Below are positions 48,345-59,788 of a stretch of 64,000 bases of DNA, piece after piece. Position 1 is the first letter of the stretch. Each line of letters begins with the position of its first letter. Under the pieces are notes generated by a model. The model searched no databases and was not told the origin of the DNA. It saw only the letters and a list, made by a program, of their open reading frames with translations. The translations under genes and the position numbers were made by a program. Origin of the DNA: Marinimicrobium agarilyticum DSM 16975 (GTDB taxonomy: Bacteria; Pseudomonadota; Gammaproteobacteria; Pseudomonadales; Cellvibrionaceae); the NCBI RefSeq assembly GCF_000423345.1, contig NZ_AUHU01000007.1:124001-188000 (forward strand). The letters run 5' to 3'.

Positions 48345-48989
48345 TCAGGCCCGGGGCACGCGGAACTCGGACCAGTCGTGAAATACGCTCGCAACGCCAA
48401 AGGCTTCCAACTGTTCGGGGGTGGCGTGAGGGCGATAGGCCCAGACGGTGGCACCGGCTCGGGTCGCGGCGGTCAGTCCCGGCACGCTGTCTTCCACGAC
48501 GAGGCAACGGGTGATATCCACGCCAATGCTTTCGGCCGCGCGGCGGTAGATGGCCGGATCGGGTTTGGCGACGGCGAGTTTTTCGGAGTCGAATCGGCGT
48601 GCTTCGGGGAAGTATTGGTCGAGGCCGGTGACGCCGAGTTTGAGCTGCAATTCGAAGGTGCGGGAGTTGGTGACGAGGGCGTAGGGGTGGGTTAGTTCGG
48701 CCAGCACGGCTTCGATACCGGGCATGGTTTTAAGTTCGGTTCTCATGAGTTGTTCGGAGAACTGGCGGTTGTCGTCTTTGAATTTGTCGAGGTCGGGGAT
48801 GGGTGTTCCGAGCCGTTGTTCGACCATTTTGATGCAGTCGGGGAAGCTGTGACCGGTGAAGGTTGTGGCGACTTGTTGTTCGGTGTAGTCCATGCCAAGA
48901 TTTTGGATGGAGCGGTGGAGGGCGCGGGTGGCAAGTATTTCGGAGTCGACCAGCACTCCATCACAGTCAAACAATACAGCTTCAAACAA
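48345..48989 (-). CDS. HAD-family phosphatase (beta-phosphoglucomutase/YniC-like)
   Basis: A 214-aa HAD subfamily IA protein with nucleophile motif FDCDGVLVDSE, the TNS motif (LVTNSRT), a Lys (AVAKPDP) and VVEDSVPGL as metal motif. It probably acts on small sugar or glycolate phosphates. The frame is open to 49151, but that part runs through repeat element 1. The likely start is TTG at 48989, eight bases after GAGG. Repeat element 1 lies 63 bp upstream, in the same transcription sense. Confidence 0.85.
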   Translation of the reverse strand: MFEAVLFDCDGVLVDSEILATRALHRSIQNLGMDYTEQQVATTFTGHSFPDCIKMVEQRLGTPIPDLDKFKDDNRQFSEQLMRTELKTMPGIEAVLAELTHPYALVTNSRTFELQLKLGVTGLDQYFPEARRFDSEKLAVAKPDPAIYRRAAESIGVDITRCLVVEDSVPGLTAATRAGATVWAYRPHATPEQLEAFGVASVFHDWSEFRVPRA

Positions 48990-49052
48990 AATGGTTTCCT
49001 CAGATTCGCTTTTGGTAAAAGTACTAATTAGTCCTACACAGCTGGCAAGTCC

Positions 49053-49164
49053 GGCCCGATTTGAGGTGAACGCTTCCGGGACACGCTGCAAGTACATCCC
49101 TGTACGCTCGCAACCGCGAATCCCACGCTCTACGGTCCCGGAAGCGTTCACCTCAAATCGGGCC
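49053..49164 (-). repeat. Structured repeat, copy 1 (30-bp arms, 52-nt core)
   Basis: Arms 49053-49082 and 49135-49164 are a perfect 30-bp inverted repeat. On the minus strand the core has GCG-TGGGATT-CGC and then GTAC-AGGGAT-GTAC. The second reads GUACAGGGAUGU, which matches the CsrA consensus RUACARGGAUGU at all 12 positions. It lies in the leader of the HAD gene, in sense orientation. An open frame crosses it but is not a gene. Confidence 0.9.
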
Positions 49165-49204
49165 TCCGTAGTCTGTAGCTGGCCTTAGGCACCAGGATCG
49201 CCGA

Positions 49205-49305
49205 GGTGTGGGGTGTAGGGTTCCCAGACCGTGGAGCGCGGGATTCGCGATTCGAGCCCCCAGGGATGGGTTCACGGCGTGTCTGGGAACCCTACACCCC
49301 ACACC
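49205..49305 (+). repeat. Structured repeat, copy 2 (25-bp arms, 51-nt core)
   Basis: Arms 49205-49229 and 49281-49305 are a perfect 25-bp inverted repeat. The core (plus strand) has CGCG-GGATT-CGCG and CCC-AGGGAT-GGG hairpins. It is 40 bp from copy 1 and points the other way. It lies 41 bp beyond the corA stop, antisense to corA. Confidence 0.9.
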
Positions 49306-49346
49306 GTACCTCCGCACTCTGCTACGCGTTCAGCCATTATGGCGAT

Positions 49347-50300
49347 TTACAACCAATCCTTGTGTTTGAAATACCAGTACGGCGCTATGCCGGACAGGAC
49401 CATGATGAGCAGGGCCCAGACGTAGCCGAACTGCCAGTCGAGTTCGGGCATGATGTCGAAGTTCATCCCGTAGATGCTGGCGACCACCGTCGGGGGCAGG
49501 AAGACCACGGCGGCGATGGAGAAGGTTTTGATGATCTGGCTCTGTTCAATGTTGATGAAGCCCTGGGTGGAGTCCATCAGGAAGTTGATTTTGTCGAACA
49601 GGAAGGCGGTGTGGGACATCAGGGTGTCCACGTCGCGTTTGATTTCCCGGGCGGTTTCCTGCAGCTCGAAGTGCTCGCGCAGGTGGCGTTGCAGGAAGGA
49701 GATGGACCGTTGGGTGTCCATCAGGCAGAGGCGGATTTTGCCGTTGCTGTCTTCCAGTTTCGCGAGTTTGTCGATGGCGTCTTCGAGTTCGGCGTCGTCA
49801 TCTTCGAGCACGAGGTGGCTGACGTCTTCGAGTTTGCGGTGGATGTCTTCGAGCACGTCGGCGAGGTTTTCGACTTTCTGCTCGAACATGGTGATCATCA
49901 GGTCCTGGGGCGAGGTGGCCTGGACCTGGCCGCGGCGGGCGCGCATGCGCAGCAGGCGGAAGTCGGCCAGGTCACCGTCGCGCAGGGTGATCAGGCGTTT
50001 TTCCTGCAGGATGAAGGCGACGGTGACGGTGCTGTGACGCCCCTCTCCCGGAGAGAGGAACAGGGAGTGGACGTGGAGGCCGGCGGCGTCCTGGAAGTAG
50101 CGGGCGGAAAATTCGATTTCTTCCACGTCGTCAGACTCGGGAAGCTCGGCCCGCAGGAAGGTATTGAGCAGTTCGCGTTCTTCTTCGGTCGGTTCGTGGG
50201 CGTCGATCCAGACCGCGTCGTTCAGCGCGGTTTTGAGGCTGCTGTCATCTACCGGTTGGTCGCGCAGGGTGGCGCCCCGGATATTGAACATTCTCAACAT
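49347..50300 (-). CDS. corA: Magnesium/cobalt transporter CorA
   Basis: A 317-aa CorA-type channel. A long soluble N-domain with coiled helices is followed by two C-terminal helices; the first ends in the signature YGMN (VASIYGMNFD). Pentameric, inner membrane, passive Mg2+ uptake. The C-terminus has the basic tail WYFKHKDWL. Single gene, followed by repeat copy 2. Confidence 0.95.
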   Translation of the reverse strand: MLRMFNIRGATLRDQPVDDSSLKTALNDAVWIDAHEPTEEERELLNTFLRAELPESDDVEEIEFSARYFQDAAGLHVHSLFLSPGEGRHSTVTVAFILQEKRLITLRDGDLADFRLLRMRARRGQVQATSPQDLMITMFEQKVENLADVLEDIHRKLEDVSHLVLEDDDAELEDAIDKLAKLEDSNGKIRLCLMDTQRSISFLQRHLREHFELQETAREIKRDVDTLMSHTAFLFDKINFLMDSTQGFINIEQSQIIKTFSIAAVVFLPPTVVASIYGMNFDIMPELDWQFGYVWALLIMVLSGIAPYWYFKHKDWL

Positions 50301-50353
50301 GGATCGTTCTCCTCACGATTACAGTATTGGTTTTCCCACCATAGCACAGAGGT

Positions 50354-50380
50354 TTGACACCTGAGTGGCGGCATTATACA
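50354..50380 (+). promoter_or_regulatory. Promoter of the small coiled-coil membrane protein gene
   Basis: A consensus TTGACA (50354-50359), a 15-bp spacer and TATACA (50375-50380), 61 bp before the ATG at 50442. The spacer is shorter than ideal. Confidence 0.5.
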
Positions 50381-50441
50381 ACAGGCGCTTATCGGATGAA
50401 TCTGATAAGGTATTGTTTTGACCGTTTAAAAGACTGCACCC

Positions 50442-50768
50442 ATGAATTTTGATGACGTCTCTGCCAATATCCAATCCAAGATGCAACGCCTGGAGCAGCA
50501 GCTGGCAAACCTGCGGGCCGCGCGCCAGCGCGTGGAAGGTGATGATGCCGCGGTCGCGGTCATTGACCGGGATATCGGGGTGCTGATGGAGACGCGGGCG
50601 AAGCTGCTTCGCTCGCAGGATCTGGTGCAGCAGGTGCACACCATCGGACAGCAGACTCAGCAACAGCATCGGCGCGATCGCTTCTACCAGAAGCTGAGTC
50701 TGGCCCTGATCGCCTTCAGTGGCGTGGCACTGTTGGCGTTGTTGGGCGTCTACCTGTTTGTGATGTAG
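50442..50768 (+). CDS. Small membrane protein with coiled coil, unknown function
   Basis: A 108-aa protein: an N-terminal coiled coil (about 5-60, heptads such as MQRLEQQLANLRAARQRVE) and one C-terminal helix (about 85-107, LALIAFSGVALLALLGVYLF). This is a tail-anchored layout. I recognise no family. It converges on grxD with a 3-bp gap. Confidence 0.7.
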   Translation: MNFDDVSANIQSKMQRLEQQLANLRAARQRVEGDDAAVAVIDRDIGVLMETRAKLLRSQDLVQQVHTIGQQTQQQHRRDRFYQKLSLALIAFSGVALLALLGVYLFVM

Positions 50769-50771
50769 GGC

Positions 50772-51095
50772 TTACTCTTTGGGAGCCGCTTCTTCCAACA
50801 GTGGCTTAAGCTCACCTTTCTCGTACATTTCCATAACGATATCGCAGCCGCCGACCAGTTCGCCCTTGACCCACAGTTGAGGGAAGGTCGGCCAGTTGCC
50901 GTATTGGGGCAGGCCGGAGCGGATTTCCGGGTTGGCCAGTACGTCGACGTAGGCAAACCGCTGACCACAGGCCATGACTGCTTGCGAGGTGCGCTGGGAA
51001 AAGCCGCATTGGGGCGCGTTCGGGGAACCCTTCATGAACAGAATGACGGGGTTCTCTTCAATTTGCTGTTTGATGGTTGCCTGTACTTCGTCCAT
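50772..51095 (-). CDS. grxD: Monothiol glutaredoxin Grx4 (CGFS type)
   Basis: A CGFS glutaredoxin that carries [2Fe-2S] clusters, often with BolA-type partners such as IbaG (36177). The active site is in APQCGFSQRT, with GSH-binding WPTFPQLWV and GGCDIV. An ATG at 51116 would add seven residues; the ATG at 51095 fits the family start and has GAGG twelve bases upstream. Either start is possible. Confidence 0.93.
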   Translation of the reverse strand: MDEVQATIKQQIEENPVILFMKGSPNAPQCGFSQRTSQAVMACGQRFAYVDVLANPEIRSGLPQYGNWPTFPQLWVKGELVGGCDIVMEMYEKGELKPLLEEAAPKE

Positions 51096-51252
51096 AGGGC
51101 TGACTGACCTCTTCATTTCATTGGGACGTGAATGTCATCGCGAGATAAACCAGAAATCCGCGCTGCGGGAAAGACCCAGCAGGCGAGTCAAGTATTACTA
51201 TTCTAACGCAGGGCGTTTCGGGAAACCAGCCGGCGTTGGCTTCAAGACTGGC

Positions 51253-53640
51253 TCAGCCCTGAGCCAGTCGCTTTTTCGTTAGCCGGGTCGGCGGGTGGCT
51301 GAGTGGGTCTTCCGGCCATGGATGTTTGGGGTAACGCCCGCGCATCTCCTTACGGACCCCCTGATAAGCGCCCTGCCAGAAAGAGGCAAGATCGGTGGTG
51401 ATGGCCAGGGGGCTACCGTTGGGCGAGGCCAGGTGCAAACGCAGTGGCACCCGACCCTCAGCCAAAGTGAATCGCTCACAGCCGAAAAACTCCTGCAGCT
51501 TGCCACTGACTTCCGCCATGCCCTGCTCCGGATACTCGACCGGCACTTCCCGGTCGCTGGGCAAAGTGACTTTTCGAGGCAGCAACCGATCCAGCGCCAG
51601 GACATTGTCAAACCCCAGATAGAACTGCAGCCCGTCAAGCCAAGGTAGCGCATCGGGGCGCACGCGCTCCGACAGGTAGGGCCCCAACCACTCTTCCAGG
51701 CGGGCCGTCAGGGCTCCCTCGCCGAGCTCGGGCAGCTCGAGCAGAGCGGCATCCCGGGCCAGCCGCGCCCGCCGCAACAGCTGAGTCGCGGCCTCCGGCC
51801 AGGGGTAAACGCCCTCGCCTTTTGCCTGAATATCCGATATCAGGGCGGCAACCAGGGCGTCACCCGACACGGGGGCCCGATCCTCCGCCGTGATCGAACC
51901 GCCCATTCGCCACAGGGTTCGCCACTGCCAGCCCCGGCCGGACAGGGTCAACTCGGAAGAGGCCTGACTCAAGGCCCGTTGCTGCTCCGGCCCGAGCGAC
52001 AGACTCCAGCCCAGGCCCGCGTGTCCCTTGCCCCGGGCGATGACTTCGGGAAACACCGCCCACTCACTGTCCAGCGTGCCTTCGGGGGCGACACTGATAC
52101 CGCTGTTGAGCCGGTAGCGCCCCGAGGACTGCCGATGGCCAATCCGATCGCGGAAGACGTGGGCCAGCACATCCCTTGCCAGCGGCGGGCCCTTCTGCGT
52201 CGACACATCGAGCGCTTTGCTCCACCGGCTTGCCTGCTTTTGCCAAAGACGGTTTCGGGCCAGTTCCCGGTCGGCCCCGCGCTGCCAGTCGTCCAGCTCC
52301 AAGGCGTCAAAATGCAGAGCCAGGGCCAGTAACAGCGCCTCTTCCGGCAAGTGTTCGCATGCGGCTGCCGCTTGTAGCAAGGCGGCAATACGTGGATGGG
52401 TCCCCAAAGCCACCACCTGACGGCCTCGTTCGGTAATCCCCCCCGTCTCATCCAGATGACCCCAGGCTCGAAGCTGCTCCCGCGCGGCGGCCAGTGCCAT
52501 GGGATTGGGCGGCTCCAGCCAGGGCAGGTCTTCAGAGGGCGAACCCCAGTGGGCCAGACGCAACGCCAAGGGCACCAGGTCGGTCGAGCGAATCTCCGGC
52601 TGATCTGCTGGCGCTAAGACTTCGCTCTGCGCCCACAACCGAAGACAGTCCCCCGCCTGAACCCGACCGGCCCGGCCGCGCCGCTGTTCGGCACTGGCAG
52701 CGCTGATACGCCGGGTCTGCAACCGACTGACCCCCGTGCCCTGTTCGTACACCGAACGGCGCGCCAGCCCGGAATCAATCACCAACGTGACATCGCCAAT
52801 GGTGAGGGAGGTTTCGGCAATATTGGTTGCCAGAATCACACGGGGCCCGCTTGCCGGCTCCAGCGCCCTTGCCTGCTCCGCGTCCGATACCCGACTGTGC
52901 AACCGGACGACCTGAGAGTTCTCCCTCGCCAACCGCTGCCCGCAGGCCTCAATCGCCCGCCAACCGGGCAGAAACACCAACACCGTGCGGCTTCGCCAGT
53001 CCGACACCGAACCGAGCGCATTCGCGACCTGCAATTCCAACGGTTCGGGCCGTTGCCGTGCATCCAGCTTCGGCGCCCGATAGTCAACCGAAACGGGAAA
53101 ACACCGTCCGGGCGCAAACAGACGCTGCTCAACCTGGGTTTGCAACGCCGGATCAGGCGTTGCGGACATCAACACCAACACCAAATCCTCCCGAAGAACC
53201 GCCGCCTCCTGCAGCAGCGCCCAGGCGGTATCCTGATCCAGCGCCCGCTCGTGCACCTCATCCAGCATCACGGTAGCGACCCCTTCCAACTCAGGATCGG
53301 AAAGAAGGCGCTGCAGGAAAACCCCCGGCGTCATCACCACCAACTGCGTCTGCCCGGAGACCTTTCGGTCAAACGGCACCTGATACCCGACCGTCTGCCC
53401 AACACCCTCACCCAGCAACTCCGCGAGCCGCCGGGCCACCCCGCGCGCTGCCAAAATACGCGGCTGAACCACCCACACCTGCCGCCCCTCGGGCGCCGCC
53501 TCCAACGCCCAGAGCGGCGCCAAAGTCGACTTCCCGGCGCCGGGCTCGGCTTCGAGCAAAAGGGGCTCCGGACCCAGAGACTTTAGGAAGTCGGGCCGGT
53601 AGTCACTGAGAGGAAGGTTGGGGAGTTCAAGTGCTTTCAA
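51253..53640 (-). CDS. hrpB: ATP-dependent helicase HrpB (DEAH/DExH family)
   Basis: A protein of about 795 aa with Walker A EPGAGKST, the DEVH box (MLDEVHERALDQD), SAT motif (MSATPD) and motif VI QRRGRAGRV. Helicase, HA2/ratchet and HrpB-specific C-terminal domains follow. The RNA or DNA target is unknown. No ATG fits: the frame begins with TTG at 53658, and a TTG at 53640 has AGG eight bases upstream. I chose 53640. Repeat copy 4 lies 50 bp upstream, in sense orientation. Confidence 0.92.
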   Translation of the reverse strand: MKALELPNLPLSDYRPDFLKSLGPEPLLLEAEPGAGKSTLAPLWALEAAPEGRQVWVVQPRILAARGVARRLAELLGEGVGQTVGYQVPFDRKVSGQTQLVVMTPGVFLQRLLSDPELEGVATVMLDEVHERALDQDTAWALLQEAAVLREDLVLVLMSATPDPALQTQVEQRLFAPGRCFPVSVDYRAPKLDARQRPEPLELQVANALGSVSDWRSRTVLVFLPGWRAIEACGQRLARENSQVVRLHSRVSDAEQARALEPASGPRVILATNIAETSLTIGDVTLVIDSGLARRSVYEQGTGVSRLQTRRISAASAEQRRGRAGRVQAGDCLRLWAQSEVLAPADQPEIRSTDLVPLALRLAHWGSPSEDLPWLEPPNPMALAAAREQLRAWGHLDETGGITERGRQVVALGTHPRIAALLQAAAACEHLPEEALLLALALHFDALELDDWQRGADRELARNRLWQKQASRWSKALDVSTQKGPPLARDVLAHVFRDRIGHRQSSGRYRLNSGISVAPEGTLDSEWAVFPEVIARGKGHAGLGWSLSLGPEQQRALSQASSELTLSGRGWQWRTLWRMGGSITAEDRAPVSGDALVAALISDIQAKGEGVYPWPEAATQLLRRARLARDAALLELPELGEGALTARLEEWLGPYLSERVRPDALPWLDGLQFYLGFDNVLALDRLLPRKVTLPSDREVPVEYPEQGMAEVSGKLQEFFGCERFTLAEGRVPLRLHLASPNGSPLAITTDLASFWQGAYQGVRKEMRGRYPKHPWPEDPLSHPPTRLTKKRLAQG

Positions 53641-53690
53641 TGAATAGGCCTGTAACAAAATTGGTTGAGGAACTTCGTAGAAGGTACGGT

Positions 53691-53793
53691 CGGGCCGTCA
53701 GGTATACCATTTCGGAAACGCATAAATCCATCCCTGAAGCTCCATCGTTTCTCCCTGAAACGACGGTTCCGAAATGGTATACCTGACGCCCCG
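53691..53793 (-). repeat. Structured repeat, copy 4 (21-bp perfect arms, 49-nt core)
   Basis: Arms 53697-53717 and 53767-53787 are a perfect 21-bp inverted repeat, extending to 53691 and 53793 with one mismatch. On the minus strand the core has TCGTTTC-AGGGA-GAAACGA (7 bp) and then TTC-AGGGAT-GGA. The core's second half, GAGCTTCAGGGATGGATTTA, is clearly related to copies 1-3. It lies 50 bp before hrpB. Confidence 0.88.
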
Positions 53794-53875
53794 CCCTCTG
53801 TGCCCCCACTTTAGCTTTACTCTCTTTTCAGATTTGTATTTTTGAACAAATGTACACGGAATCACGTGTGTTGAT

Positions 53876-53910
53876 GGTGGGTGGCGCGCTTCGCGCTTAC
53901 CGCACCCTAC
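53876..53910 (+). repeat. REP-like half element with GCGCG-CTT-CGCGC hairpin
   Basis: Shares GGTGGCGC-CTTCGC-CTTACC with the full inverted element at 59704-59788 and ends in ACCCTAC. It folds as GCGCG/CGCGC. It lies between structured repeats 4 and 3. No partner arm is found nearby. Confidence 0.6.
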
Positions 53911-53940
53911 GAATCCATAGAACCTCGAAGATGGCACTGA

Positions 53941-54051
53941 GGGCTTGGGCGGGGTAAACCCTTGCAGGACCGTGGAGCGGGGGACCCGCGATTCGAGCCT
54001 ACAGGGATGTATTTACGGCGTGTCCTGCAAGGATTTACCCCGCTCAAGCCC
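53941..54051 (+). repeat. Structured repeat, copy 3 (30-bp arms, 51-nt core)
   Basis: Arms 53941-53970 and 54022-54051 pair at 28 of 30 positions; one difference is a G-T wobble, the other C-A. The core (plus strand) has GCGGG-GGA-CCCGC and TAC-AGGGAT-GTA; CUACAGGGAUGU matches the CsrA consensus at 11 of 12. It lies 15 bp beyond the TonB-receptor stop, antisense to that gene. Confidence 0.9.
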
Positions 54052-54066
54052 GGACTACCCCGAACG

Positions 54067-56124
54067 CTACCATTGATAATCCACATTCAGACCAACACTC
54101 ACCTGACGTCCGGGCGCGGGCTCAAAAGAACGACCATTGCCCTGATTCACAATCACCGCCCCCACATACGGCTCATCCGTCACATTCTCCAGTTTCGCCC
54201 AGCCAGCAACCAACCAATCCCCAAACACACGTTCAGAGTCCACACTAAAATCCCAAGTGACCGCCGACGGCGCCCAGGTCTCATTATCATCCGCCGTCGC
54301 CACCTCACTGCGATAGCGACCCACCAACGTCAACCCCAAACGAGAATCCAACAAAGGCTCCCAACGAAGCTGACCATACACATTCGAATCCGCAATCCCA
54401 GGCAACTGATTGCCCGACCACTCGCCGGCCGAATAGGTCGCATCCAGATAACTCGCACTGTAACGGGCCCACCAACCCGGCGCCAGCGACAGCGAACCGA
54501 ACGCCTCCAGGCCCCAACGCTCAGTGGCCGCCGCGTTGCGATACGTCGTCCGCCCCCCTTCGGACTGATCCACCACCAACTCATCCGAACTCTCAATCTG
54601 AAACACCGTCAGCTCCATCAGCGGCGAACCGGGCGGCCCAAAGCGAACCCCGATGTCCCGTTGATCACTCTCCGCCGGCGACAGCTGGGTATTCAACCCG
54701 GTCCCCTCATTGCGATAGGCCATCTCCGTCAGCGTCGCCGTTTCGTAACCGCGCCCCACACTGGCAAACAACTGCCACCGGTCCATCAGGTCATAAGTGA
54801 CGCCCAGGGCGGTCGACACAAAATCGTCCTCCCGGCCACCACTGTCGTCAGGGTTGGCGGGTTGTCCGTTTTGAGTCGGCACGATGAAATGATCATCCAC
54901 CGCAAACGTCAGGTCGCTGTATCGGGCACCGCCGGTCACCGACCAACGAACGCCCGGCTGCCAGGTGAAAATGGTGAACAGGTCCCGACTGTCCACCTCG
55001 CCCAACTCGTTCCGACGCAAGTCGCCGGTGACCCCGTTATCGTTCACATAACCGCGGCGACGGTCTTCCATCTGCTCCAGGCTCAGCCCCACTGAGGCTT
55101 CCAACGGGGCACCTGCCAGGGTCAGGTCCCGCGTATAGCTGGCCCGCAGGCCAGCGAAATCGCGGGTCAGATCAATCACCGCACCGGAACTGGTGATGTC
55201 CTCACCGCCGAAAGGCAGCCACTGATTCACTTCCCGCTGACCCCGCCAAAGGGCCGCTTCCCAGCGGTTCTCGGTTTGCGTCTGGCGCAGCGTCATGGAG
55301 GCCTGACGATGCCGGATTTTTTTGCGGGAATCATAGGTAAAGGCACGTTCATTGCCCGCTTGCGGGTCTTCCCGCCAGCGCTCGGGGCTCAAGCCCAGAG
55401 GATCTTGCAATAGCGGGTCGTCGCTGATATCCACCCGGACAATGGCCTCAATGCCACTATCAGCGAGGTGGTAAAGCCGGGCCCCGGCATTGCGCCGTTC
55501 CGCCTCAGCGTGAGGGCGTTCGCCATCGCTCTCAAACCGGGAGGCCTGAATCCGCGCGCCCCAATCCCCCTCGCGCCACTCGCCCGCCAGGGCCTGGCGA
55601 CGCCGGTCGCCCTCGCCAGCGAGGAGCTTGGCACTCAAACGGTTGTCCTCGGGGGCCGCCGTCTCAAACAGAATTACCCCTCCGGAGCCGTTGCCGTATA
55701 GCGAGGCCAAAGGGCCGCGCAGCACGCGCACGCGGGTGACCTCATCCACCGGCACGCTGGAGAGCTGGCCCTGCCCGTCGGGCGTGGCCAGCGGTACCCC
55801 ATCCAATTGCAGATCAATGCCGCGCACGCCAAAAGCGGAGCGCGCCCCGAATCCACGAAGGGTGACCCGGGTGTCCTGAGCATAGTTGGAACGGCTGTCG
55901 GCCTGCACCCCGGGCAAGCCCTGGAGGAGCTCTCCGCTGTCAATGCGCAGTCCCGGCTGCTGTTCGCGCATGCTCAACTCGGTCCCGCCCGGCATGGGTT
56001 CGGGTTGCTCATCGCGCTCGCCAGTGACCACCAAGGTCTCCAGGCCGTCACCCCAGGCCGGAGCGTTCAATGTCGCCGCAACAATGAACAGAACAGGGAT
56101 CGGAAACCATCGCATAACCGTCAT
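54067..56124 (-). CDS. TonB-dependent outer-membrane receptor
   Basis: A 685-aa receptor: signal peptide (about 1-25, ending PAWG), a TonB-box-like strand (ETLVVTGER), plug domain (about 35-150, LLQGLPGVQADSR, VRVLRGPLASLYGNGSGGVI) and a 22-strand barrel. The C-terminal residue is Trp (VGLNVDYQW), consistent with barrel insertion. The motifs are those of siderophore/ferric-type or vitamin receptors; the ligand is not evident and no riboswitch is seen upstream. The ATG at 56124 has AAGGTGG upstream. Confidence 0.9.
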   Translation of the reverse strand: MTVMRWFPIPVLFIVAATLNAPAWGDGLETLVVTGERDEQPEPMPGGTELSMREQQPGLRIDSGELLQGLPGVQADSRSNYAQDTRVTLRGFGARSAFGVRGIDLQLDGVPLATPDGQGQLSSVPVDEVTRVRVLRGPLASLYGNGSGGVILFETAAPEDNRLSAKLLAGEGDRRRQALAGEWREGDWGARIQASRFESDGERPHAEAERRNAGARLYHLADSGIEAIVRVDISDDPLLQDPLGLSPERWREDPQAGNERAFTYDSRKKIRHRQASMTLRQTQTENRWEAALWRGQREVNQWLPFGGEDITSSGAVIDLTRDFAGLRASYTRDLTLAGAPLEASVGLSLEQMEDRRRGYVNDNGVTGDLRRNELGEVDSRDLFTIFTWQPGVRWSVTGGARYSDLTFAVDDHFIVPTQNGQPANPDDSGGREDDFVSTALGVTYDLMDRWQLFASVGRGYETATLTEMAYRNEGTGLNTQLSPAESDQRDIGVRFGPPGSPLMELTVFQIESSDELVVDQSEGGRTTYRNAAATERWGLEAFGSLSLAPGWWARYSASYLDATYSAGEWSGNQLPGIADSNVYGQLRWEPLLDSRLGLTLVGRYRSEVATADDNETWAPSAVTWDFSVDSERVFGDWLVAGWAKLENVTDEPYVGAVIVNQGNGRSFEPAPGRQVSVGLNVDYQW

Positions 56125-59703: not shown

Positions 59704-59788
59704 GGTAGGTGGCGCTTCGCTTACCTACCCTACTCAACATCCGCCTCACTGCGTATCTGTAGGGTTGGTAAGCGAAGCGCCACCTACC
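59704..59788. repeat. REP-like inverted repeat between convergent genes
   Basis: Arms 59704-59733 and 59759-59788 pair at 29 of 30 positions, with a 25-nt loop. The arm contains GGTGGCGCTTCGCTTACC and ends in CCTAC. It lies 13 bp after the ABC ATPase stop and 9 bp before the end of the convergent PhzF gene. It can act as a bidirectional transcript end. Confidence 0.85.

What the first reader, a model, noticed from the sequence alone, without database searches (positions are those of the whole stretch)
53691..54051. Pair 2 repeats the same divergent layout before hrpB
Copy 4 (minus) and copy 3 (plus) again diverge. Copy 4 is in sense 50 bp before hrpB; copy 3 is antisense, 15 bp beyond the TonB-receptor stop. 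Gene A end - plus copy - minus copy - gene B start is thus the same in both pairs. This suggests pairs move or act as units, like mosaic REP elements (BIMEs).
Basis: partly seen in the sequence, partly recalled or inferred. Interest (0 to 1): 0.6.

Follow-up and report, generated by a model that had tools for sequence, protein, structure and literature searches.

The report
Paired mobile hairpins with CsrA-site loops
The two hairpins before hrpB are one copy of a mobile paired repeat with about 150 or more hairpins in this genome, and each hairpin ends in two small loops that look like docking sites for the bacterial regulator CsrA, which would tie a seemingly inert repeat to a global control system.

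Summary
In detail: window 53696-53788 (-) and 53941-54051 (+) are two ~100-nt hairpins in divergent orientation between a TonB-receptor stop and hrpB, and the corA/HAD pair has the same layout. Among 150 covariance-model hits in the genome (a capped list), 42 of 45 close neighbours are divergent; in Stenotrophomonas maltophilia D457, 27 of 27. Six own-genome pairs are homologous end to end, up to 89%, and four loci carry a whole pair that both congeners lack, so pairs do move as units, though single members also come and go. They are not REPs or BIMEs: no GTAG tag, ~110-nt hairpins, no RAYT link found. Stems differ between copies yet stay almost perfectly complementary. The conserved part is the cap: two small hairpins with GGA in the loop, mostly ANGGAN, about 20 nt apart, also in other gammaproteobacteria. 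This is the published CsrA/RsmA dual-site pattern. The nearest named family is Rfam TwoAYGGAY (RF01731), matched just below its cut-off. Best reading: a MITE/REPIN-like family carrying a dual CsrA-binding RNA module. Mobility as a pair is well supported; CsrA binding is inferred; the mobilising enzyme is unknown.

The parts
53696..53788 (-). Copy 4: hairpin element (perfect 22-bp arms; imperfect extension to 53688-53796), sense to hrpB
   Evidence: R1 57.8 bits
53941..54051 (+). Copy 3: hairpin element (30-nt arms, 93%), antisense to the TonB-receptor gene
   Evidence: R1 105.8 bits
53789..53940 (.). Spacer between the divergent pair; holds a GTAG-type REP-like palindrome at about 53876-53910
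   Evidence: sequence
53977..53989 (+). P2 hairpin of copy 3; GGA at 53982-53984
   Evidence: sequence; family pattern
54000..54011 (+). P3 hairpin of copy 3 (TAC-AGGGAT-GTA); GGA at 54005-54007, 20 nt after the P2 GGA
   Evidence: sequence
53746..53762 (-). P2 hairpin of copy 4 (loop with AGGGA)
   Evidence: sequence
53726..53739 (-). P3 hairpin of copy 4 (loop AGGGAT)
   Evidence: sequence
49053..49164 (-). Pair 1, copy 1: hairpin with perfect 30-bp arms, 52-nt cap
   Evidence: an element lies at the same place in congener G001
49205..49305 (+). Pair 1, copy 2: hairpin with perfect 25-bp arms, 51-nt cap; absent at this place in G001
51253..53658 (-). hrpB (gene B)
   Evidence: TIGR01970 586.8 bits, cut-off 546.15
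54067..56124 (-). TonB-dependent receptor gene (gene A)
   Evidence: PF00593, PF07715

Best explanation
Each pair is one non-autonomous mobile element of roughly 250-500 bp, bounded by two inverted ~110-bp hairpins (outer ends ...GTCCGG / CCGGAC...). It sits between genes, typically about 37 bp after a stop codon, and spreads and is lost mostly as a pair, sometimes one hairpin at a time. Each hairpin has a long stem (P1, up to 30 bp in this genome) whose sequence is free but whose two arms change together, topped by a cap with two small hairpins (P2, P3) that carry GGA in the loop (mostly ANGGAN), the two GGAs about 20 nt apart. If transcribed in the sense direction, that cap should be bound by one CsrA/RsmA dimer bridging the two loops, so that the copies act as CsrA decoys or as CsrA sites in 3' or inter-cistronic mRNA. 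SHOWN here: paired mobility, intergenic placement near gene ends, stem covariation, near-invariant GGA loops and fixed spacing. INFERRED: transcription, CsrA binding, any effect on genes. UNKNOWN: the mobilising enzyme.
For: Pairing 42/45 and 27/27 divergent. Pair-level homology up to 88.9% over 296 bp, stopping at the outer ends of the two hairpins. Four loci with a whole pair absent from both other congeners; two of these (own L212 16967/17132 and L214 9661/9831) are copies of one another at 86.5%. 0 of 62 own clusters inside genes; 51 of 68 flanking stop codons within 60 bp, against 10 of 52 start codons. 142 aligned copies: all 19 P1 pairs changed on both sides, 99.1% of cells paired, covariation score reached by 0 of 500 shuffles. 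P3 loop in the same alignment: A 139/141, G 141/141, G 141/141, A 138/138, with two free N positions. In other gammaproteobacteria, selected on P3 only, the P2 GGA lies in a predicted hairpin loop in 70 of 76 and the GGAs are 19-22 nt apart in 71 of the 74 that have both. CsrA facts: SELEX consensus RUACARGGAUGU, ANGGAN hexaloop, bridging 10-63 nt with optimum above 18 (PMC7652899, passages). The same inference was published for TwoAYGGAY (PMC4333381, passages). csrA is in all 18 element-bearing genomes of the 38 relatives, own included.
Against: No RNA or binding data. csrA is also in 18 of 20 relatives without elements, so its presence does not discriminate. G-U pairs are rare in P1 (22 of 2,880 cells at positions 1-20), unlike an ordinary RNA helix; a DNA-level process or young age may explain that. 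Orientation relative to genes shows no 5'-UTR preference: the gene an element faces is antisense for 55 and sense for 46 of 101 elements. P2 loops depart from ANGGAN in many genus copies (e.g. GGGGAC in 22 of 75). Some S. maltophilia copies have lost the P3 GGA to an expansion or insertion. No target-site duplication could be read and no transposase was found. Single members are gained or lost alone too. In other species orientation is less strict: my count of neighbours gives 11 divergent, 4 convergent and 2 same-strand of 17.
Confidence: 0.6

Rival explanations
1. A purely DNA-level mobile hairpin: the folded single strand is the substrate of an unknown recombinase or transposase (as attC sites or IS200/IS605 ends are; recalled), and the GGA loops are its recognition marks. 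No RNA function.
For: P1 is almost purely Watson-Crick (2 G-U in 910 cells at positions 1-10 of the genus set); pairs move as units with fixed outer ends; no orientation preference toward genes.
Against: Non-Watson-Crick cells lean to G-U over A-C in the GGA-sense strand: 10 to 1 (genus) and 12 to 5 (S. maltophilia) at positions 1-20, together 22 to 6, two-sided binomial p 0.004; 68 to 9 when each stem is trimmed to its best length. Copies are related, so these are not independent. The loop degeneracy (A fixed, N free, GGA fixed, N free, two of them about 20 nt apart) is the CsrA pattern in detail. No candidate enzyme found.
Confidence: 0.25
2. A REP/REPIN (BIME-like) family mobilised by RAYT tyrosine transposases, or the TIR repeats of TIRYT genes.
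For: High copy number, inverted pairs and placement between tandem and convergent genes resemble REPs as described in PMC3733652 (abstract and passages).
Against: No GTAG/CGTC tag and about three times longer or more; 1 weak one-sided R1 hit near 31 Y1_Tnp loci; G002, G007, G009 and G015 have elements but no Y1_Tnp match; the own genome has one weak Y1 match with a stop inside; one S. maltophilia D457 Y1 gene and its SJTL3 counterpart are flanked by GGGGTCAGATCC repeats instead (L158, L159).
Confidence: 0.05
3. Ordinary terminator or mRNA-stabilising hairpins kept after gene ends; the cap is incidental.
For: Median 37.5 bp from flanking stop codons and few pairs in divergent intergenic regions (2 of 38 pairs against 41 of 165 intergenic gaps of at least 100 bp).
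Against: The cap, not the stem, is the conserved part; pairs are homologous mobile units; where the pair is missing the orthologous gap is 5-101 bp in 9 of 11 comparisons (164 and 366 bp in the other two), leaving little room for a replacement terminator.
Confidence: 0.1

Closest known systems
TwoAYGGAY RNA motif (Rfam RF01731; Weinberg et al. 2010)
   Same: Long outer stem enclosing two small hairpins with AYGGAY-type loops. 41 own-genome matches at E<=10, all over the full model, 35 of them at E<0.1, best 42.9 bits; 33 of the 41 overlap R1 hits on the same strand and 7 of the other 8 lie beside an R1 hit as its divergent partner. Alignment. Predicted CsrA-binding by Gardner and Eldai (PMC4333381, passages).
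   Different: Every match lies under the 43-bit gathering score; P3 is short here (3-4 bp) and much longer in the Rfam consensus; the passages I saw do not describe it as a mobile paired repeat.
REPINs / BIMEs (GTAG REPs with RAYT)
   Same: Inverted intergenic palindrome pairs in high copy, moving as pairs.
   Different: No GTAG tag, no RAYT link found, hairpins ~110 nt with copy-specific stems.
TIR repeats of TIRYT genes (Di Nocera et al. 2013, PMC3733652, abstract and passages)
   Same: Inverted repeats in S. [quoted passage not shown]
   Different: The Y1 gene I could compare (L158) is flanked by self-complementary GGGGTCAGATCC repeats, not by these elements.
CsrB/CsrC and RsmX/Y/Z CsrA-sequestering sRNAs
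   Same: GGA motifs in hairpin loops that bind CsrA dimers.
   Different: Those are a few dedicated genes with many sites (recalled, and PMC4333381 passages); this is two sites per hairpin on about 150 dispersed mobile copies.
MITEs (e.g. ERIC, RUP, NEMIS; named in PMC3733652 passages)
   Same: Short non-coding intergenic elements with inverted ends.
   Different: Ends here are themselves large structured hairpins; no parent transposase or target-site duplication found.

Membership tests
REP / REPIN | 20-40 nt palindrome tagged GTAG or CGTC | tested here: not met
   93-112 nt hairpins; flanks GGCACTGAGG / CCGGAC
REP / REPIN | inverted pairs at short spacing | tested here: met
   42/45 and 27/27, gaps 57-284 and 93-230 bp
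REP / REPIN | flank or coexist with a RAYT (Y1_Tnp) gene | tested here: not met
   (30 of 45 listed Y1 matches plus the own one, about 1.5 kb each side)
TwoAYGGAY (RF01731) | score at or above the curated gathering score | tested here: not met
   best 42.9 bits against 43; 0 gathering hits in the window and in 12 other loci
TwoAYGGAY (RF01731) | two hairpins with AYGGAY-type loops inside an outer stem | tested here: met
CsrA/RsmA-binding RNA | GGA in ANGGAN hairpin loops, two sites 10-63 nt apart | tested here: met
   definition from PMC7652899. Met by P3 in nearly all copies; subtype-1 P2 loops keep GGA but fit ANGGAN less well
CsrA/RsmA-binding RNA | binds CsrA and depends on the GGAs | not testable with these tools
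   needs a binding assay
MITE | inverted ends, no coding capacity, empty sites in relatives | tested here: met
MITE | target-site duplication and parent transposase | tested here: inconclusive
   intergenic flanks too diverged to read a duplication; the two genes I looked at between more distant facing elements are not transposases

The most novel reading that the evidence does not exclude
A large family of selfish, paired mobile hairpins has built the dual CsrA-binding module into its body. Hundreds of dispersed copies form a distributed CsrA sponge and rewire 3' regions of mRNAs to CsrA with every new insertion, and CsrA may in turn control the element's own mobility. The TwoAYGGAY RNA of unknown function would be the visible edge of this family.
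Probability: 0.3. Interest if true: 0.88.

Novelty: new variant of a known kind. Interest (0 to 1): 0.7.

Why it matters
If true, a global post-transcriptional regulator has a mobile, high-copy set of binding sites in Xanthomonas, Stenotrophomonas, Marinobacter, Microbulbifer, Haliea and relatives, easy to overlook because stem sequences differ between copies. It would give a function to an orphan Rfam family, offer a bacterial case of mobile elements spreading regulatory RNA sites, and make copy-number effects on the Csr system testable. The coupled change of both stem arms is also a natural system for studying hairpin-arm correction or whole-element conversion.

Tried and rejected
Rfam gathering scans of the window and of 12 other loci gave nothing; a permissive scan of 48900-54300 gave only a miRNA family on a hairpin, and long hairpins also draw miRNA families, so sub-threshold Rfam scores need caution. 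The RAYT/TIRYT hypothesis was tested and dropped. A 5'-UTR role was dropped: no preference for gene starts. Autonomous relatives: two genes lying between more distant facing elements are ordinary (GH43 enzyme, enoyl-CoA reductase). Plasmid and phage collections gave no match to one 101-base copy. Spacers mostly share only short pieces, many of them REP-like; arms within a pair are no more alike than random copies (11.3 against 11.2 of 19), and 11 of 41 pairs mix subtypes 1 and 2. I first read the near-absence of G-U as proof of a DNA-level process; the G-U over A-C excess made me weaken that.

Mended on rechecking: one search counted some A-C cells twice through a naming clash in my script; one search recounts positions 1-20 as G-U 22, A-C 6, other 18 of 2,880.

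Rows dropped before counts: 11 of 66 rows, 2 of 20 and 1 of 75 were opposite-strand shadows of stronger hits; one such shadow (L046) was also left out of my count. One search scored only 150 of 1,328 first-look candidates, so 150 is set by a cap; its last row is weak (E 0.0066). The 76 'other gammaproteobacteria' elements come from 83 hairpin records in 60 of the 119 loci, filtered for arms of at least 14 and the P3 motif; they include Stenotrophomonas and Xanthomonas.

Papers: PMC3733652 outline, abstract and passages; PMC4333381, PMC2864571, PMC4066749, PMC7652899, PMC7694677, PMC11661157, PMC9788540 passages only; others seen as listings.

Full report
WHAT IS THERE. The finding's two copies are hairpin elements of about 100 nt: 53696-53788 (minus) and 53941-54051 (plus). 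A second pair lies at 49053-49164 (minus) and 49205-49305 (plus). All four fold far better than shuffles (z -6.8 to -9.0). Reading along the minus strand, both loci run: gene end, plus copy, minus copy, next gene start. The genes are a TonB-dependent receptor then hrpB, and corA then a HAD hydrolase.

ANATOMY OF ONE ELEMENT. A long stem (P1) of 20-30 bp, never more than 30 in the own-genome scan where both arms belong to one element, encloses a cap of usually 51-53 nt; some other species reach longer arms (up to 37). The stem sequence differs in almost every copy, while the two arms stay complementary. On 30 copies, 99.5% of P1 cells pair. On 142 copies from the own genome, two congeners and two S. 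maltophilia strains, 99.1% pair, all 19 pairs have changes on both sides, and no shuffle of 500 reaches the observed covariation score (this alignment is fitted to the model, and 57 of the 96 sources I held for it were given). The cap holds two small hairpins. P3 reads CANGGANG with closing pairs that themselves covary. In the 142-row alignment its loop is A 139/141, N, G 141/141, G 141/141, A 138/138, N. P2 differs in stem sequence, and in places in length, between subtypes but nearly always carries GGA in its loop.

NUMBER AND PAIRING. A covariance model built from 30 own-genome copies gives 150 matches in the own genome, a number set by a scoring cap. Of 45 neighbouring matches under 1 kb apart, 42 are minus-then-plus, 2 plus-then-minus and 1 same-strand; gaps in the divergent pairs are 57-284 bp. 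By chance about 5 such neighbours would be expected, and a quarter of them divergent. Copies that look single are partly a cap effect: 4 of 12 in rescanned stretches, and 7 more by an RF01731 match, have a partner, each in divergent orientation. In S. maltophilia D457, 27 of 27 neighbours are divergent, 93-230 bp apart, with 36 of 90 elements unpaired at that score. In 29 loci of other gammaproteobacteria my count is 11 divergent, 4 convergent and 2 same-strand of 17, so the rule is weaker there, Xanthomonas and Microbulbifer among the exceptions.

PAIRS MOVE AS UNITS. Six own-genome pairs with the same composition (a subtype-2 hairpin on one side, a subtype-1 on the other) align end to end. 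The best is 88.9% over 296 bp, another 86.5% over 297 bp in inverted orientation. Homology runs from the outer GTCCGG of one hairpin to the outer CCGGAC of the other and stops there. Own contig C6 is collinear (inverted, about 76% identity) with a stretch of G001. Looking from each divergent pair to each other genome where anchors were found (23 one-way comparisons, so a shared locus can count twice), 11 show no element at the orthologous place, 5 one, 6 two and 1 three; other comparisons had no anchors. Four loci carry a pair that both other congeners lack: own C6 36967/37132, 69661/69831 and 82297/82466, and G001 191821/192098, the last sitting where the own genome has 5 bp between genes. 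At hrpB itself the own genome has the pair, G001 has 36 bp instead, and G002 has a single element upstream of hrpB, antisense to it. At the corA/HAD locus G001 has one element where the own genome has two. Own 36014 is single where both congeners have a pair, and G002 has two single elements with nothing in either relative. So pairs are the main unit, but single members come or go too. Further counter-evidence: arms within a pair are no more alike than random copies, and 11 of 41 pairs mix subtypes 1 and 2, so pairs are old or mosaic associations rather than fresh duplications of one hairpin.

EVOLUTION IN PLACE. Between D457 and SJTL3 (mean identity 90.3% over the blastn pieces), 12 of 13 D457 loci have an element at the same place in SJTL3 (the thirteenth is broken by an IS110-family insertion), but often a different one: other stem, other cap (20 element pairs compared). 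In one case both stem arms change together while the 52-nt cap is unchanged. Whole-element conversion between copies and arm correction are both possible; I cannot separate them.

WHERE THEY SIT. A simple gene caller of mine (it recovers the six genes named) places 0 of 62 own clusters inside genes. Divergent pairs lie between tandem genes 27 times, convergent 9 and divergent 2; intergenic gaps of at least 100 bp in the scanned stretches are 105, 19 and 41. 51 of 68 flanking stop codons are within 60 bp (median 37.5), against 10 of 52 start codons. Relative to the gene an element faces, 46 of 101 are sense and 55 antisense, so a 5'-UTR role is not indicated.

WHAT THE CAP LOOKS LIKE. The CsrA literature (PMC7652899, passages) gives the SELEX consensus RUACARGGAUGU, the ANGGAN hexaloop in bound structures, and bridging of two sites 10-63 nt apart with an optimum above 18. 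P3 of window copy 3 is CTACAGGGATGTA. In 76 distinct elements from other gammaproteobacteria, found by a pattern that covers P3 only, the P2 GGA lies in a predicted hairpin loop in 70, outside one in 4, and is absent in 2; the spacing between the GGAs is 19-22 nt in 71 of 74 and 33-36 in 3. In the window's genus it is 18-21 nt in 74 of 75 (9 of 84 copies lack the canonical P3 and were not scored). In S. maltophilia it is 19-20 nt in 43 of 43 (2 of 45 not scored). The nearly fixed spacing despite changing P2 stems is the strongest sign of a two-site ligand. csrA is found in 36 of 38 genomes, including all 18 with elements and 18 of 20 without, so this does not discriminate.

NEAREST NAMED FAMILY. 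Rfam RF01731 (TwoAYGGAY) gives 41 matches in the own genome and 12 in D457 at E<=10, the best at 42.9 bits against a cut-off of 43. Of the 41, 33 overlap R1 hits and 7 more sit beside one as divergent partner. Of 14 control genomes one has a match, under the cut-off. By the curated cut-off these are not members; by architecture they are close. Long hairpins also draw sub-threshold miRNA families, so part of the score is generic. Gardner and Eldai (PMC4333381, passages) proposed that TwoAYGGAY RNAs bind CsrA. Weinberg et al. 2010 (PMC2864571, passages) list it as probably an RNA, in human gut samples, gammaproteobacteria and Clostridiales. Two searches for the family's name and accession (passages read in three of the papers) and searches joining CsrA or RsmA with repeat terms (listings only) showed me no description of it as a paired mobile repeat; most subscription papers are outside that library.

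NOT REPs. The tag is absent, the size is wrong, and 31 Y1_Tnp loci (30 of 45 listed matches in 20 genomes, plus the own one) show one weak one-sided hit. Four genomes with 27 to at least 112 elements have no Y1_Tnp match. One D457 Y1 gene is flanked by GGGGTCAGATCC repeats (L158), agreeing with the GGGGWSAS TIR motif of Di Nocera et al. (PMC3733652, abstract and passages).

SPREAD. Of 150 genomes drawn across the phylum, own included, 10 match, all in the window's class (only 30 genomes are listed and strict filters were used).

RNA OR DNA. Non-Watson-Crick cells at P1 positions 1-20 are G-U 10, A-C 1, other 7 of 1,820 (genus) and G-U 12, A-C 5, other 11 of 1,060 (S. maltophilia) (which mends a double count). 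Excess of G-U over A-C in the GGA-sense strand fits selection on RNA; the rarity of both fits recent copying, conversion or a DNA-hairpin constraint. I hold RNA function as more likely but not proven.

VERDICT. A mobile, paired hairpin family carrying a probable dual CsrA-binding module; new variant of a known kind (MITE/REPIN-like in movement, TwoAYGGAY-like in structure).

Noticed in passing
   Followed up: partly
L286 3520-5061 (SJTL3): A second, apparently broken IS110-family transposase (PF01548 on a 135-aa ORF) lies between a minus and a plus element about 1.4 kb apart.
   Followed up: partly
window 59704-59788: A different palindrome of the GTAG REP type (GTAGGTGGCGCTTCGCTTACC...), 30-bp arms with one mismatch, between an ABC-transporter gene and a phzF-like gene.
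   Followed up: no
window about 53876-53910; L224 13924-14008; L230 1256-1345 and 13452-13532: REP-type palindromes lie in the spacers of several divergent pairs, as if spacers were safe landing places for a second repeat family.
   Followed up: no
G000:C14:74023-74162, C4:406386-406525, C1:243372-243511 and others: A long subtype (about 140 nt for the modelled part) in which the P2 region is expanded.
   Followed up: no
L156 (genome of Marinobacterium ramblicola) and L158 (S. maltophilia D457): Y1 transposase genes flanked by repeated GGGTCAGA-type inverted repeats.
   Followed up: no
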